Assembly (NCBI GenBank): GCA_934678915.1
Contig: CAKUSF010000026.1
Span: forward strand, 1-21,035
Reading direction: 5' to 3'
From: an uncultured Bacteroidales bacterium
GTDB lineage: Bacteria; Bacteroidota; Bacteroidia; Bacteroidales; UBA932
Length of the DNA: 21,035 bases
In this document: positions 13,062 to 21,035 of the stretch, one piece after another
How positions within the stretch are numbered: position 1 is the first letter of the stretch
Layout of the letters: each line of letters begins with the position of its first letter
Notes under the pieces: generated by a model
Database searches by the model: none
What the model was told of the DNA's origin: nothing
What the model saw: only the letters and a program-made list of their open reading frames with translations
Program-made: the position numbers and the translations under genes

Positions 13062-14075
13062 ATGAGCCTTCAGGTTGAGATAGAAAAGCATTCCGGCTTC
13101 TGCGGAGGAGTGATCCGAGCTATCAGCCGGGCAGAGAAGTTCTTGGATGAGCATCCGGGGGAAAAGTTATACTCTTTGGGTGCGATTGTACACAACGAGG
13201 CTGAACTACAGCGACTTGGAGGCAAAGGGCTCGTCACAATCGACAAAGAAGGACTTCTGAATATCCCGACCCCGTCATCCGAGACTCTTCTCATCCGTGC
13301 GCACGGAGAGCCACCGCAGACATATTCATTGGCCTCAGAACTTGGACTAACAGTCATCGACTGCACGTGTCCGGTGGTGCTGAGGCTTCAGAAAAGCATC
13401 CGAGAAGCCTATGAACGGCTAAAACCTGTCGGTGGGCAATTGATCATATTCGGAAAAATCGGTCATGCCGAGGTGCTTGGGCTGTTGGGGCAAGTAGATG
13501 GAGATGCTGTGGTGATTGAGAACATCGGGATGCTACGCTCTGCCCTTGACAGCGGTTCCATTCGGACAGATTGTCCGTTGGAAATTTTCTCCCAGACTAC
13601 AAAGAGTCCGGTAGAATATTCCCGGATCTGCGAGGTACTTTCAGAGTCGCTTCGACAGTTCAACCGCTCGAACGTTGAGCCTGCCGAACCATCTGGACGG
13701 GCGCTTAGACAGGCTCAGCGACCGCTAAGAACTGAGACTTTCGATGGAGAATCGGTATATGGCCAGGCCAGTCTGACAGTTCATAACACCATTTGTTCTC
13801 AAGTGGCGTCACGGCATGAAGAACTGGCCGAGTTTGCTCTTCGGCACGATGTCATCATCTTTGTGTCAGGTGCTTCCAGTTCCAACGGCAAGGTTCTTTT
13901 CGACCTATGCAAGTCCAAGAATCCTCGCACTTATCATATTTCAGAGCCTTCTGGACTGTCTCCTGAATGGTTCCGGGACGGAGACAAGGTCGGTGTCTGC
14001 GGAGCGACCTCTACTCCAGGATGGCTTTTGGAGCAGGTCGCAGAAAGAATTTTTTGCAGGAATATCCACAAATAG
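13062..14075 (+). CDS. ispH: 4-hydroxy-3-methylbut-2-enyl diphosphate reductase with repeat insertion
   Basis: Iron-sulfur enzyme of the last step of the MEP isoprenoid pathway, reducing HMBPP to IPP and DMAPP. The three cluster cysteines are Cys14 in SGFCGGV, the Cys of TCPVVLRLQ (about residue 103) and the Cys of HNTICSQVASR (about 245). Also visible are GAIVHNEAEL, LLIRAHGEPP, IFGKIGHAEVLG, SQTTKSP and VCGATSTP. At 337 residues it is about 40 longer than typical Bacteroides IspH. The excess lies between SESLRQ (about 195) and LTVHNTICSQ (about 240) and is encoded by a REP-like repeat cluster (13648-13724) that keeps the reading frame. The insertion falls just before the third cluster cysteine, probably in a surface loop. 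All catalytic motifs are kept, so I expect an active enzyme. Confidence 0.92.
   Translation: MSLQVEIEKHSGFCGGVIRAISRAEKFLDEHPGEKLYSLGAIVHNEAELQRLGGKGLVTIDKEGLLNIPTPSSETLLIRAHGEPPQTYSLASELGLTVIDCTCPVVLRLQKSIREAYERLKPVGGQLIIFGKIGHAEVLGLLGQVDGDAVVIENIGMLRSALDSGSIRTDCPLEIFSQTTKSPVEYSRICEVLSESLRQFNRSNVEPAEPSGRALRQAQRPLRTETFDGESVYGQASLTVHNTICSQVASRHEELAEFALRHDVIIFVSGASSSNGKVLFDLCKSKNPRTYHISEPSGLSPEWFRDGDKVGVCGATSTPGWLLEQVAERIFCRNIHK
13648..13724 (+). repeat. REP-like palindromic cluster inserted in frame in ispH
   Basis: Three related units are visible: a forward core CGCTTCGACAGTTCAACCGC (13648-13667), a reverse core CGTTGAGCCTGCCGAA (13673-13688) and a forward core TTAGACAGGCTCAGCG (13705-13720). 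The reverse and last forward cores pair at 13 of 16 positions. The last unit also forms its own hairpin, CGGGCGCT (13698-13705) with AGCGACCG (13717-13724), one G-A mismatch and an 11-base loop. The peptide encoded, VEPAEPSGRALRQAQRPL, resembles the translation of dispersed palindromic repeats I know from other Bacteroidetes. The exact borders are uncertain. Confidence 0.75.
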
Positions 14076-14084
14076 TTAACTTTG
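14053..14084 (+). promoter_or_regulatory. Promoter of efp
   Basis: TTTG at 14053-14056 and TAACTTTG at 14077-14084 are separated by 20 bp. The -33 element lies inside the end of ispH and the -7 box begins two bases after its stop codon. Transcription from here would give efp a leader of about 100 bases, which contains a 23-codon open reading frame. Confidence 0.8.
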
Positions 14085-18063: not shown

Positions 18064-19011
18064 ATGTTATCCTCCACGATTATTGCAGTGCTTCTGTCTA
18101 TTTTCTGTGAAATGGGAAGCAATGGGACGGAGAACGTCATGGGCTGTCGCTTCGACAAGATCAGCGAAAGCCCAACCCAGGAGCAAGGAGTAAAGGAACT
18201 GTGCGAGCACCACACAATGAAGAATCAGGGACTTGAGCGGGAATATTACCTCTACCGTCCGGAAGGTCTTAAGGCAGGGGCTCCGCTGGTGATAGTACTG
18301 CACGGCTACGGTGGCTCAGCCCTCAAGGGAAAGAAAGCGATGATGGATGTCGCTGATAAGAACGGCTTTGCGGTCTGCTATCCTCAGGGCATAAACGATC
18401 CGAAAGGCAAACCGGGCTGGAACGTCCGCTACCCTTCACAGGAAGGAATGAAGACTGATGACGTGAAGTTCCTTATCGCCCTCTCCAAAGAGCTCCAGAA
18501 GAAGTTCAGCCTCAGTGCCAAGAACACCTTCCTCACCGGAATGTCCAACGGTGGTGACATCATCTACCTGATTGCGATGCGCGCACCGAAGGCCTTCAAG
18601 GCCATGGCCTCTATCGCTGGATTACAATTCACTTGGATGGAGACTGAATATTCCTACAGACATCCGCTTCCTTTCATGGAGGTCCACGGCACGCAGGATC
18701 ACACTTCCGAATGGCTTGGCGACCCTGAAAATAAAGGAGGGTGGGGAGCCTATCTTCCGGTCCCTGCTGCCATAAGTCGAATCATAGCCGTCAATGGTTG
18801 CACCGAGGAATATGTCACCGAACTTCCTCGCTGGGATGGCCGTAATCAAGTCACCCTGTACCAGTTCAAGGCCGGCAAGCCCGCAAAAAAAGGCGGCAAG
18901 CCAACCGAAGTCTGGCTCTACAAAGTCGAAGGCGGCAACCACTCATGGTCCGACAAAGACATGGACACCTGCTCCGAAATCTGGCGCTTTTTTAGCCAAT
19001 GGCTTGACTAA
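18064..19011 (+). CDS. Secreted esterase, CE1/PHB-depolymerase (LpqC) family
   Basis: Alpha/beta-hydrolase of 315 residues with a hydrophobic N-terminal segment (SSTIIAVLLSIFC) that reads as a signal peptide; the Cys does not sit in a good lipobox. VIVLHGYGGSA is the oxyanion loop. The probable triad is Ser161 (GMSNGG), Asp212 (HGTQDHT) and His293 (GGNHSW). Relatives include feruloyl and acetyl-xylan esterases and poly(3-hydroxybutyrate) depolymerases; in gut Bacteroidales the former role, deacylation of plant polysaccharides, is likelier, but no neighbouring glycosidase supports it. The stretch just after the signal peptide (MGCRFDKISESPT) is encoded by a REP-like hairpin. The gene ends just before the promoter of the restriction endonuclease. 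Confidence 0.85.
   Translation: MLSSTIIAVLLSIFCEMGSNGTENVMGCRFDKISESPTQEQGVKELCEHHTMKNQGLEREYYLYRPEGLKAGAPLVIVLHGYGGSALKGKKAMMDVADKNGFAVCYPQGINDPKGKPGWNVRYPSQEGMKTDDVKFLIALSKELQKKFSLSAKNTFLTGMSNGGDIIYLIAMRAPKAFKAMASIAGLQFTWMETEYSYRHPLPFMEVHGTQDHTSEWLGDPENKGGWGAYLPVPAAISRIIAVNGCTEEYVTELPRWDGRNQVTLYQFKAGKPAKKGGKPTEVWLYKVEGGNHSWSDKDMDTCSEIWRFFSQWLD
18141..18173 (+). repeat. REP-like hairpin inside the esterase coding sequence
   Basis: GGGCTGTCGCT (18141-18151) pairs with AGCGAAAGCCC (18163-18173), with one G-A mismatch, around an 11-base loop. The core CGCTTCGACAAGATCAGCGA matches the last ispH unit at about 19 of 25 positions, and both have CGCT, 11 bases, AGCG. It encodes part of the linker after the signal peptide. 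Chance is possible because the element is short. Confidence 0.45.
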
Positions 19012-19014
19012 AAC

Positions 19015-19047
19015 TTTTGTATAAGTGGATCGAAAAGGCTAACTTTG
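19015..19047 (+). promoter_or_regulatory. Promoter of the restriction-modification operon; left copy of the flanking repeat
   Basis: TTTG at 19016-19019, 20 bp, then TAACTTTG at 19040-19047 form a full Bacteroidetes promoter four bases after the esterase stop. Over 33 bases it matches the purL promoter at 20841-20873 at 28 positions, including an unbroken shared CGAAAAGGCTAACTTTG. The endonuclease ATG follows 19 bases later. Confidence 0.85.
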
Positions 19048-19066
19048 GAATAAAACATAGTCGTTT

Positions 19067-19951
19067 ATGAACAGTAATCCCCTGGCCGAGGTTTTTGGGT
19101 TTCCGATATCCAACCAAAGCAAAAAAGCAGATAACTTTAGGGCCAACAAACTCTGTCCTTTCTGTAATATTGTTCCTAACTGCACAAAGGACAAGGCTCA
19201 AGATCCATTAGGAGTGTGCAGCATTTTCCATAATGGAGAAGGTGTCATTACTTGCCCTGTTCGATTTCGTGAAGATTGGACGATAATTGAGGATGCTGCA
19301 AGATTCGCGTTTCCTATTGGTTCTAAGTGGACATCTCTTTCTGAAGTCAAGTTGAACGATATTGATGGAAAATCAGCTGGAAACATCGACTATGTTATCG
19401 TGCAGTTAAACGATGATGGGGATATCATCGATTTCGCTTCCGTGGAAGTGCAAGGTGTGTATATCTCAGGTAATTTAAGAAACGCTTTCAATAAATATAT
19501 CAGCAATCCATCACCAGATTTTAAATGGGGTGGAGACAATTATCCTCTCCCTGACTATCTTTCGTCTTCAAGAAAAAGGCTTATTCCGCAAATGCTTTCT
19601 AAAGGGGGCATATTCAAGTCATGGGGAAAGAAACAATGTATCGTCATCCAAGAAGAGTTCTTTTCAACATTGCCTAAGCTTCCTACTGTAAATGAAGCCA
19701 ATGCAGACATTGCTTGGTTTCTTTACCGTCTGGAGCATGACACCCGTACAGACTCTTACCATCTCGTTTTATCAAGGGTAGTTTACACGGAATATCATTC
19801 TGCTTTGAACACGGTGATTGCGCCAAGGCCAGGAAGCATAGATGTGTTTATAAGTTCACTACAAAAGAAGCTTGAATCTAAAAATCAACCTCAAATATCA
19901 CCAGATAATCCGCGTACTATTCTCGATTCGTCTAACGGCACAAATGAATGA
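19067..19951 (+). CDS. NotI-family type II restriction endonuclease
   Basis: Product of 294 residues. It begins NPLAEVFGFP, followed by a four-cysteine cluster (Cys30, Cys33, Cys39, Cys51 in KLCPFCN, PNCTKDK and GVCSI), which matches the iron-binding Cys4 motif of NotI. The catalytic residues of a PD-(D/E)XK nuclease appear as Asp108 (GNIDYVIV) and Glu127-Val-Gln129 (VEVQG); the E-x-Q form is the one used by NotI. At 294 residues it is shorter than NotI (383). Its stop overlaps the methyltransferase start (ATGA). Codons are more A/T-rich than in flanking genes, consistent with transfer. The target sequence cannot be read from the protein; the adenine methyltransferase partner argues that it contains an A. 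Confidence 0.88.
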   Translation: MNSNPLAEVFGFPISNQSKKADNFRANKLCPFCNIVPNCTKDKAQDPLGVCSIFHNGEGVITCPVRFREDWTIIEDAARFAFPIGSKWTSLSEVKLNDIDGKSAGNIDYVIVQLNDDGDIIDFASVEVQGVYISGNLRNAFNKYISNPSPDFKWGGDNYPLPDYLSSSRKRLIPQMLSKGGIFKSWGKKQCIVIQEEFFSTLPKLPTVNEANADIAWFLYRLEHDTRTDSYHLVLSRVVYTEYHSALNTVIAPRPGSIDVFISSLQKKLESKNQPQISPDNPRTILDSSNGTNE

Positions 19952-20829
19952 ACATGCAAACTATTGTCAATTACGATTTGTTCGGGAATATTGTAAAAGA
20001 AAAGGAGAAAGTGGTGAATGTCTCATCAGTTCCTCAACGCAGTCCATTTAGGTATCCTGGTGGAAAAACATGGCTGGTACCTACGTCAAGAAAATGGTTC
20101 AGTCATTGTTCTGGCTGTAACACGTTGATCGAACCTTTCTGTGGAGGTGGAATCACAGGACTTACTGCCATATTCGAAGGATATTTCAAGAAAGTCATAT
20201 TCTCCGAAATTGATGAAGATGTCGCAGTCGTTTGGAAAACTATGCTAAGCAATGATTGTGATTGGCTTATTGCCCAAATATTGACATTCAAACCTCAATA
20301 TGAAGAGCTTCTTAAAATTCTTTCAAAAGAGGGCAAGAACGATAGAGAATTAGCTTTCTCGACTCTGCTTAGAAACAGGACCTGCCATGGAGGAATCCTT
20401 GCTAAAGGTTCCGGAATGATGAAGAACGGAGAAAACAGCAAAGGAATATTTTCTAGATGGTATCCAGAGACACTCGCCAGAAGAATAAAGGCAATTCATG
20501 AGATGTCAGCAAAAATAGAATTCCATCAGGCCGATGCTTTTTCAATAATACGTCAACATATTCATGATTCCAAGGCAGCATTTTTCATTGATCCACCATA
20601 CACTGTAGCAGGTCATCGACTTTATACTCATTTTGAGATTGATCACGAAGGTCTGTTTGACCTTGTCTCAGAGATCAAAGGGAACTACCTAATGACATAT
20701 GACTGCGTAGAAGAGGTTAAGAATTTGGCTCATAAACACTTCCTATCATATCAATCAATCCCTATGCAAACCACTCATCTTATCAAAAAAGATGAACTTC
20801 TGATCTCCAATGATTTTTCTTGGTTATGA
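19948..20829 (+). CDS. D12-class (Dam-like) adenine-N6 DNA methyltransferase
   Basis: Protein of 293 residues that should protect host DNA from the adjacent endonuclease. It has the Dam/D12 architecture. SPFRYPGGKTWLVP (about 32-45) is the N-terminal SAM-site motif, EPFCGGG (62-68) is motif I and FIDPPY with DPPY at 215-218 is catalytic motif IV. The DPPY form and D12 class indicate N6-methyladenine rather than cytosine methylation. The central target-recognition region is about residues 95-200. The ATG overlaps the endonuclease stop by four bases, so translation is coupled and nuclease comes first. No controller protein is encoded between or beside them. AT-rich codon use matches the endonuclease gene. 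Confidence 0.92.
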   Translation: MNMQTIVNYDLFGNIVKEKEKVVNVSSVPQRSPFRYPGGKTWLVPTSRKWFSHCSGCNTLIEPFCGGGITGLTAIFEGYFKKVIFSEIDEDVAVVWKTMLSNDCDWLIAQILTFKPQYEELLKILSKEGKNDRELAFSTLLRNRTCHGGILAKGSGMMKNGENSKGIFSRWYPETLARRIKAIHEMSAKIEFHQADAFSIIRQHIHDSKAAFFIDPPYTVAGHRLYTHFEIDHEGLFDLVSEIKGNYLMTYDCVEEVKNLAHKHFLSYQSIPMQTTHLIKKDELLISNDFSWL

Positions 20830-20840
20830 CCAAGAAATGA

Positions 20841-20873
20841 TTTTGTAAATGTGAGCCGAAAAGGCTAACTTTG
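20841..20873 (+). promoter_or_regulatory. Promoter of purL; right copy of the flanking repeat
   Basis: TTTG at 20842-20845 and TAACTTTG at 20866-20873 are separated by 20 bp. The region matches the promoter at 19015-19047 at 28 of 33 positions. It lies 12 bases after the methyltransferase stop and 28 bases before the purL ATG. No terminator is visible between methyltransferase and purL. Confidence 0.85.
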
Positions 20874-20901: not shown

Positions 20902-21035
20902 ATGTCCAATTACCGCATTTTCGTGGAGAAACACCCGGAGTTCCAGGTGGAGGCAAAAAGTCTTCTTGGGGAACTCAACGAGAACTTGCAGCTGGAGCTG
21001 AAAACGCTTCGGCTGCTTAATGTTTATGACCTTTT
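20902..21035 (+). CDS. purL: Phosphoribosylformylglycinamidine synthase (3' partial)
   Basis: Only the first 44 residues are in the window. They begin MSNYRIFVEKHPEFQVEAKS and continue with a leucine-rich segment ending LRLLNVYDL. This matches the N-terminus of the large single-chain PurL of Clostridia and some Bacteroidales (form YRIFVEKKPGF-VEA...NRYDV), which catalyses the glutamine-dependent fourth step of purine synthesis. It has its own promoter. The assignment rests on a short N-terminal match, and the gene runs off the end. Confidence 0.75.
   Translation, partial: MSNYRIFVEKHPEFQVEAKSLLGELNENLQLELKTLRLLNVYDL

What the first reader, a model, noticed from the sequence alone, without database searches (positions are those of the whole stretch)
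19015..20873. Near-identical promoter copies bracket the restriction-modification cassette
Positions 19015-19047 and 20841-20873 match at 28 of 33 bases, and both are complete TTTG-20 bp-TAACTTTG promoters. The left copy drives the endonuclease and the right copy drives purL. Everything between is the AT-rich R-M pair. The simplest reading is that the cassette entered upstream of purL and carries, or duplicated, the purL promoter, so the native gene keeps a promoter while the cassette uses its own copy. The repeat could also be the recombination site for gain or loss by deletion, which would leave one intact promoter in front of purL.
Basis: partly seen in the sequence, partly recalled or inferred. 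Interest (0 to 1): 0.7.

Follow-up and report, generated by a model that had tools for sequence, protein, structure and literature searches.

The report
Duplicated purL promoter flanks restriction cassette
In a bacterium related to rumen Bacteroidales, two related copies of what looks like the promoter of the purine gene purL sit on either side of a DNA-cutting defence gene pair, probably a scar of how the pair moved in; most of the parts are ordinary.

Summary
19015-19047 and 20841-20873 match at 28 of 33 bases, the best 33-base direct repeat in the window; 8 shuffles reach only 23-25. Both copies have the TTTG/TAACTTTG form of a Bacteroidota primary promoter. They enclose an AT-rich Type II pair: NotI-family nuclease and D12 N6-adenine methyltransferase. 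Two unrelated promoters of this lineage should rarely be so alike (model P about 7e-7; 4e-5 with consensus bases fixed).

The right copy looks like purL's own promoter. Of 109 purL starts examined, 6 have an own promoter; these six are also the most similar to the copies, and none has the R-M pair beside it. The best, in G004, has the same 28-nt spacing to the start codon. Six related R-M cassettes with both flanks readable lack flanking repeats (20-22 of 33), so the repeat belongs to this site. Duplication of the purL promoter around an inserted R-M pair is the best reading; it resembles known R-M insertion with long target duplication.

No empty site (esterase, one promoter, purL) was found. 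The copies differ at 15% and share at most 17 identical bases in a row, so the event is old or had two sources, and deletion between them looks unlikely. The insertion mechanism remains inference.

The parts
18064..19011 (+). Left flank gene: PHB-depolymerase-like esterase
   Evidence: PF10503, 36.2 bits; NF050058 below its cut-off
19015..19047 (+). Left 33-bp copy: TTTTG-N20-TAACTTTG promoter, 3 bp after the esterase stop, 19 nt before the nuclease ATG
   Evidence: 28 of 33 identical to the right copy
19067..19951 (+). NotI-family Type II restriction endonuclease, 294 aa
   Evidence: PF12183, 189.5 bits; D108, E127-x-Q129 and C30, C39, C51, C63 invariant in 20 aligned sequences
19948..20829 (+). 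D12-class N6-adenine DNA methyltransferase, 293 aa, overlapping the nuclease gene by 4 bp
   Evidence: PF02086, 59.8 bits; PADLOC methyltransferase models
20816..20837 (+). Candidate intrinsic terminator hairpin over the methyltransferase stop codon; the T-run that follows is the TTTTG of the right promoter
   Evidence: terminator-like site (4 found in the region, 2.8 expected in shuffles); RNA fold z -3.1 and -3.5 for two frames of it. Suggestive only
20841..20873 (+). Right 33-bp copy: purL promoter, 28 nt before the purL ATG
   Evidence: related promoter at the same 28-nt distance before purL of G004
20902..21035 (+). purL, first 44 codons, runs off the window
   Evidence: TIGR01857, E 7.3e-9; 95% identical to purL of L004-L006

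Best explanation
The two 33-bp copies descend from one promoter, that of purL. In the window's lineage purL already had its own primary-sigma promoter. A small, AT-rich Type II R-M pair came to lie just upstream of purL, and the promoter was duplicated around it, in the manner of insertion with target duplication. The right copy stayed at its native distance and drives purL; the left copy took the place where this R-M family often has a promoter of its own and drives nuclease plus methyltransferase. Shown: the repeat, its excess over chance, the position match to purL promoters elsewhere, and absence of flanking repeats at six other cassettes. Inferred: that insertion caused the duplication, the direction of copying, and transcription from either copy.
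For: Best direct repeat of the window, above all 8 shuffles. Against 54 promoter-like sites taken from 796 kb of G001, G004 and G036 the two copies are far more alike than promoters of that lineage should be: P about 7e-7 under a base-frequency model, 4e-5 with the 12 consensus positions fixed; of 1431 pairs one reached 28 or more (31 of 33; not traced, by eye two versions of one promoter), the rest at most 25. Of 109 distinct purL starts, 6 have an own promoter, and these are the 6 most similar to the copies (25, 23, 21, 20, 20, 20 of 33 within 120 bp; next 17); none of the six loci encodes a relative of the nuclease or methyltransferase in the DNA fetched. With up to 2 mismatches over 20 fixed positions, 25 of 400 genomes match; the only one with no mismatch is at purL (G004), and G311's, with 2, is also at purL. 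Left and right are closer to each other (28 of 33) than to G004's (24 and 25), so duplication probably postdates that split. 6 of 6 related R-M cassettes with both flanks readable have no flanking repeat (20-22 of 33).
Against: No empty site with the same two flanks. Three of the six own-promoter purL loci (L113-L115) have near-identical promoters, so about four independent cases. Three non-purL sites among those pulled out of 400 genomes reach 26 of 33, one more than G004's purL promoter, so orthology rests on position as well as identity; two non-purL sites have 1 mismatch to the search pattern, fewer than G311's purL site. The copies have diverged by 15% and by eye the homology stops at about the 33 bases, so the ends of any target duplication cannot be seen. 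The window's own genome is not held, so copies elsewhere in it could not be counted.
Confidence: 0.55

Rival explanations
1. Convergence: strong housekeeping promoters of this lineage share an extended form (TTTGTA...CGAAAnGGnTAAnTTTG), and the R-M pair and purL independently acquired one each.
For: 23 of 25 pattern hits in 400 genomes have no purL beside them; among them are ileS twice, eno, tpiA, secA and ruvA as read by eye from the translations; the listing shows no hit for the reversed pattern in any of the 400 genomes. Three such sites reach 26 of 33 to one copy.
Against: In the set of 54 promoter-like sites not chosen by this motif, the spacer there is mostly A/T, not CGAAAAGG, and model P for 28 of 33 is 4e-5 even with consensus positions fixed. 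The shared 17-mer occurs nowhere in the 251 fetched loci (1.77 Mb, partly overlapping).
Confidence: 0.2
2. The R-M pair arrived by homologous recombination (a circle or a donor chromosome segment) from a related strain in which it already sat behind a purL-type promoter; crossing over at the promoter left two diverged copies.
For: Would explain why the copies differ by 15% although they flank one insert. Nuclease relatives of 96, 89 and 88% identity exist on other contigs.
Against: Their genomic setting could not be seen; the homology is very short for RecA (general knowledge).
Confidence: 0.15
3. Shared operator: the common spacer CGAAAAGGC binds a regulator that co-controls the R-M pair and purL.
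For: All five differences lie outside CGAAAAGGCTAACTTTG; CGAAA-GG recurs in the purL promoters of G004 and G311.
Against: Loose matches elsewhere stand before other genes, none of which I recognised as a purine gene apart from purL itself.
Confidence: 0.07

Closest known systems
Insertion of R-M genes with long target duplication (Nobusato 2000, Helicobacter pylori; not seen itself, recounted in PMC3031569, PMC3874152, PMC1643837, PMC4978471)
   Same: A small R-M unit without a transposase gene lies between two direct copies of what looks like host sequence.
   Different: Here about 33 bp instead of the order of 100 bp (PMC3874152 passage); copies diverged; the duplicated piece is a whole promoter; no matched empty allele in hand.
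NotI-family (PF12183) Type II restriction enzymes
   Same: Same Pfam family; E-x-Q and four invariant Cys agree with NotI's Q in place of K and its Cys4 iron site (PMC4081073 passages).
   Different: No PDB chain found by sequence or profile at E 0.001. Partner is an N6-adenine methyltransferase, so the target should contain A and would not be NotI's GCGGCCGC (NotI site recalled; inference).
Bacteroidota sigma-ABfr promoters (-7 TAnnTTTG, -33 TTTG; PMC7366714 passage)
   Same: Both copies have both elements, 20 bases apart.
   Different: Spacer CGAAAAGGC next to the -7, unlike most of 54 lineage promoter-like sites.

Membership tests
R-M insertion with long target duplication | Insert holds R-M genes and no transposase | tested here: met
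   the only long same-strand ORFs between the copies are nuclease and methyltransferase
R-M insertion with long target duplication | Insert bounded by direct repeats of target sequence, beyond chance | tested here: met
   28 of 33, shuffles 23-25; right copy resembles purL promoters of loci without the R-M pair
R-M insertion with long target duplication | Close relative with an empty site holding one copy | tested here: inconclusive
   Single copy before purL in G004 and G311, but the left neighbour differs (IS3-like by eye; Y1 transposase); no esterase-promoter-purL site found
IS-borne or composite-transposon R-M | IS elements flank the cassette | tested here: not met
   Immediate flanks are esterase and purL; DNA beyond the window's right end was not available
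NotI-family Type II R-M | PF12183 nuclease with conserved active-site pattern, next to a methyltransferase | tested here: met
   active-site roles assigned from recall and PMC4081073 passages
NotI-family Type II R-M | Cleavage and matching methylation activity | not testable with these tools
   needs enzyme assay
sigma-ABfr promoter | -7 TAnnTTTG and -33 TTTG | tested here: met
sigma-ABfr promoter | Transcription start a few bases downstream | not testable with these tools
   needs 5'-end RNA mapping

The most novel reading that the evidence does not exclude
A self-standing R-M unit enters at a promoter and copies that whole promoter, so that the incoming nuclease/methyltransferase operon is expressed at once and the important host gene downstream keeps its own promoter; purL genes with an own promoter serve as a recurring safe site for mobile DNA (R-M here, IS3-like in G004, Y1 transposase between 109-nt repeats in G311).
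Probability: 0.2. Interest if true: 0.55.

Novelty: new member of a known kind. Interest (0 to 1): 0.35.

Why it matters
Some R-M genes appear to move without any linked mobile element (PMC3874152 passage), and how they enter chromosomes is poorly known. A case where the duplicated target is a working promoter would explain both expression of the newcomer and survival of the host gene, and it can be tested by finding an empty allele.

Tried and rejected
Chance repeat: rejected. Repeat as a regular part of the cassette: rejected, 6 of 6 cassettes with both flanks (L179, L180, L181, L245, L246, L247) have none within 300 bp before and 400 bp behind; L182 (cut before the nuclease start) and L244 (cut before the methyltransferase end) were dropped from that count. 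For L181 the methyltransferase end was placed from a partial match. Left copy as part of the esterase 3' flank: a scan of 78 loci, among them the 37 esterase loci, found no promoter copy behind an esterase at 23 or more of 33; one 23-base hit, about 390 bp behind the esterase of L005, lacks TAACTTTG. Purine regulon: the loose matches are not before purine genes as far as I recognised them, purL apart. Viral, plasmid or phage carriage: the pattern scans of viral contigs gave no relative; 35 plasmid records and 1 phage record hold relatives, all below 60% identity. Paper searches for a purL promoter with R-M, and for promoter duplication with R-M, insertion and direct repeats, gave 0 papers; two papers naming Cryptobacteroides (my recalled guess at the group) and R-M were seen as a listing only.

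Full report
Observation. The two 33-bp stretches are as described: 28 of 33 bases agree, with the five differences at repeat positions 8, 10, 14, 15 and 16, outside TTTG and TAACTTTG. A scan of all non-overlapping same-strand 33-mer pairs puts this pair first in the 21-kb window; 8 dinucleotide-preserving shuffles gave best values of 23, 25, 23, 25, 24, 24, 23, 24. The strict promoter pattern occurs three times in the window against 0.02 expected; the third, at 14053-14084, lies before the efp-like ORF.

What lies between. 19067-19951 is a NotI-family nuclease (PF12183, 189.5 bits) and 19948-20829 a D12-class adenine methyltransferase (PF02086). Aligned with 19 of the 120 listed relatives, the nuclease keeps D108, E127-x-Q129 and four invariant cysteines; a review states that NotI has Q in place of the usual K and an iron Cys4 site (PMC4081073, passages). 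No solved structure was found by sequence or profile. GC is 0.41 and 0.39 against 0.47-0.53 for six genes outside. The nuclease family is common: 6158 relatives at E 0.001 or better among 6465 candidates.

Is the similarity just promoter similarity? From 796 kb of three related genomes (G001, G004, G036) I collected 54 TAnnTTTG sites with at least 3 of 4 bases of a TTTG at about the right distance, out of 146 TAnnTTTG sites before ORFs. Their base frequencies give P = 6.6e-7 for 28 or more of 33 between two draws, and 4.2e-5 with all 12 consensus positions set equal. Of the 1431 real pairs, one reached 31, a pair I did not trace but which looks like one promoter seen twice; the rest reached at most 25. 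So common descent is favoured. Against this, a loose form of the whole motif (20 fixed positions, up to 2 mismatches) was found in 25 of 400 genomes, with none listed for the reversed pattern; 23 of these 25 have no purL beside them, and three reach 26 of 33 with one of the copies. A lineage-typical strong promoter form therefore seems to exist and keeps convergence alive as a rival.

Which gene does it belong to? purL starts were fetched from the best-scoring matches of four searches (matches in 66 of 101, 159 of 398, 56 of 80 and 54 of 75 genomes, partly the same genomes), at most 30 loci per search, with some loci from other calls; the sample favours close relatives. 125 loci held a purL start; after dropping repeats of the same sequence and starts too near a contig end, 109 were left. 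Of these, 78 follow a same-strand ORF within 60 bp, 6 have their own TAnnTTTG promoter with more than 60 bp to the next same-strand ORF, and 25 fit neither class. The six are the six most similar to the window's copies: 25, 23, 21, 20, 20 and 20 of 33 within 120 bp, the next being 17 (over 250 bp one other locus, L116, reaches 19). None of the six loci encodes a relative of nuclease, methyltransferase or esterase in the 1 to 6 kb fetched around purL. In G004 the promoter ends 28 nt before the ATG, as does the right copy; in G311 24 nt. The nuclease was not found in the whole genomes of G004 or G311. One of the six genomes, G268, holds a distant PF12183 protein on another contig. This makes the right copy the likely native purL promoter. 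In G001-G003 (L004-L006), which share nagB2, the esterase and purL with the window, purL follows another ORF by about 25-30 bp with no such promoter seen, and about 3.4 kb lies between esterase and purL (ORFs listed for L004 only). The neighbourhood has been remodelled more than once.

Does the cassette bring the repeat? Eight cassettes of the same nuclease-methyltransferase pair were examined; six have both flanks in the contig, and their best flank-to-flank 33-mer is 20-22 of 33, against 28 in the window; L182 and L244 are cut and not counted. By direct reading, several have another TAnnTTTG-like box close before the nuclease start, for example L179, L244, L245 and L246. So the left copy is special to this site and seems to occupy the place of a promoter that such cassettes often have.

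How it probably works. The right copy drives purL and the left copy the R-M operon (inferred from position). A hairpin over the methyltransferase stop codon (z about -3), followed by the T-run that opens the right promoter, may end R-M transcription just before purL starts; the scan found 4 terminator-like sites where 2.8 are expected, so this is only suggestive. Before the left copy no such hairpin stands out (z 0.3 and 0.6). Duplication of the target on insertion gives this layout in one step and is a reported behaviour of R-M genes, with long, variable target duplications of the order of 100 bp (PMC3031569, PMC3874152, PMC1643837, PMC4978471: passages read; the original papers were not seen). 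Arrival by homologous recombination from a related strain would leave the same layout. The 15% difference between copies means an old event or two sources. For loss by deletion the longest shared run is 17 bases; that makes an efficient RecA route unlikely (inference).

Limits. The window's own genome is not held, the contigs with 88-96% relatives could not be opened here, and no empty allele was found. 55% for duplication of the purL promoter around an inserted R-M pair reflects this.

Noticed in passing
L079:164-1347 (G311): Before purL of G311 a Y1_Tnp-type transposase (PF01797, 28.2 bits) sits between two 109-nt direct repeats of 76% identity, the right one ending just before the purL promoter.
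   Followed up: partly
L042:1880-2685 (G004): Divergent ORFs that look like an IS3-type transposase pair (by eye only) lie upstream of the single-copy purL promoter.
   Followed up: partly
window:19948-20829: The NotI-type nuclease is paired with an adenine methyltransferase that scores best against PADLOC's PD-Lambda-5_B (145.7 bits); all eight other cassettes examined have a match to this methyltransferase, L181 only a partial one in the listing.
   Followed up: no
L248, L251 (G879): A nuclease relative in two pieces, one with a TGA and a TAA inside: a decayed copy.
   Followed up: no
window:14053-14084: Third strict TTTG-N20-TAACTTTG promoter, before the efp-like ORF, 20 of 33 to either copy.
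   Followed up: no
window:14820-14904: tRNA on the minus strand (Rfam RF00005).
   Followed up: no
L080-L103, from a sample of 400 genomes: An extended spacer form, roughly CGAAAnGG before the -7, recurs at promoters of housekeeping genes in this lineage.
   Followed up: partly
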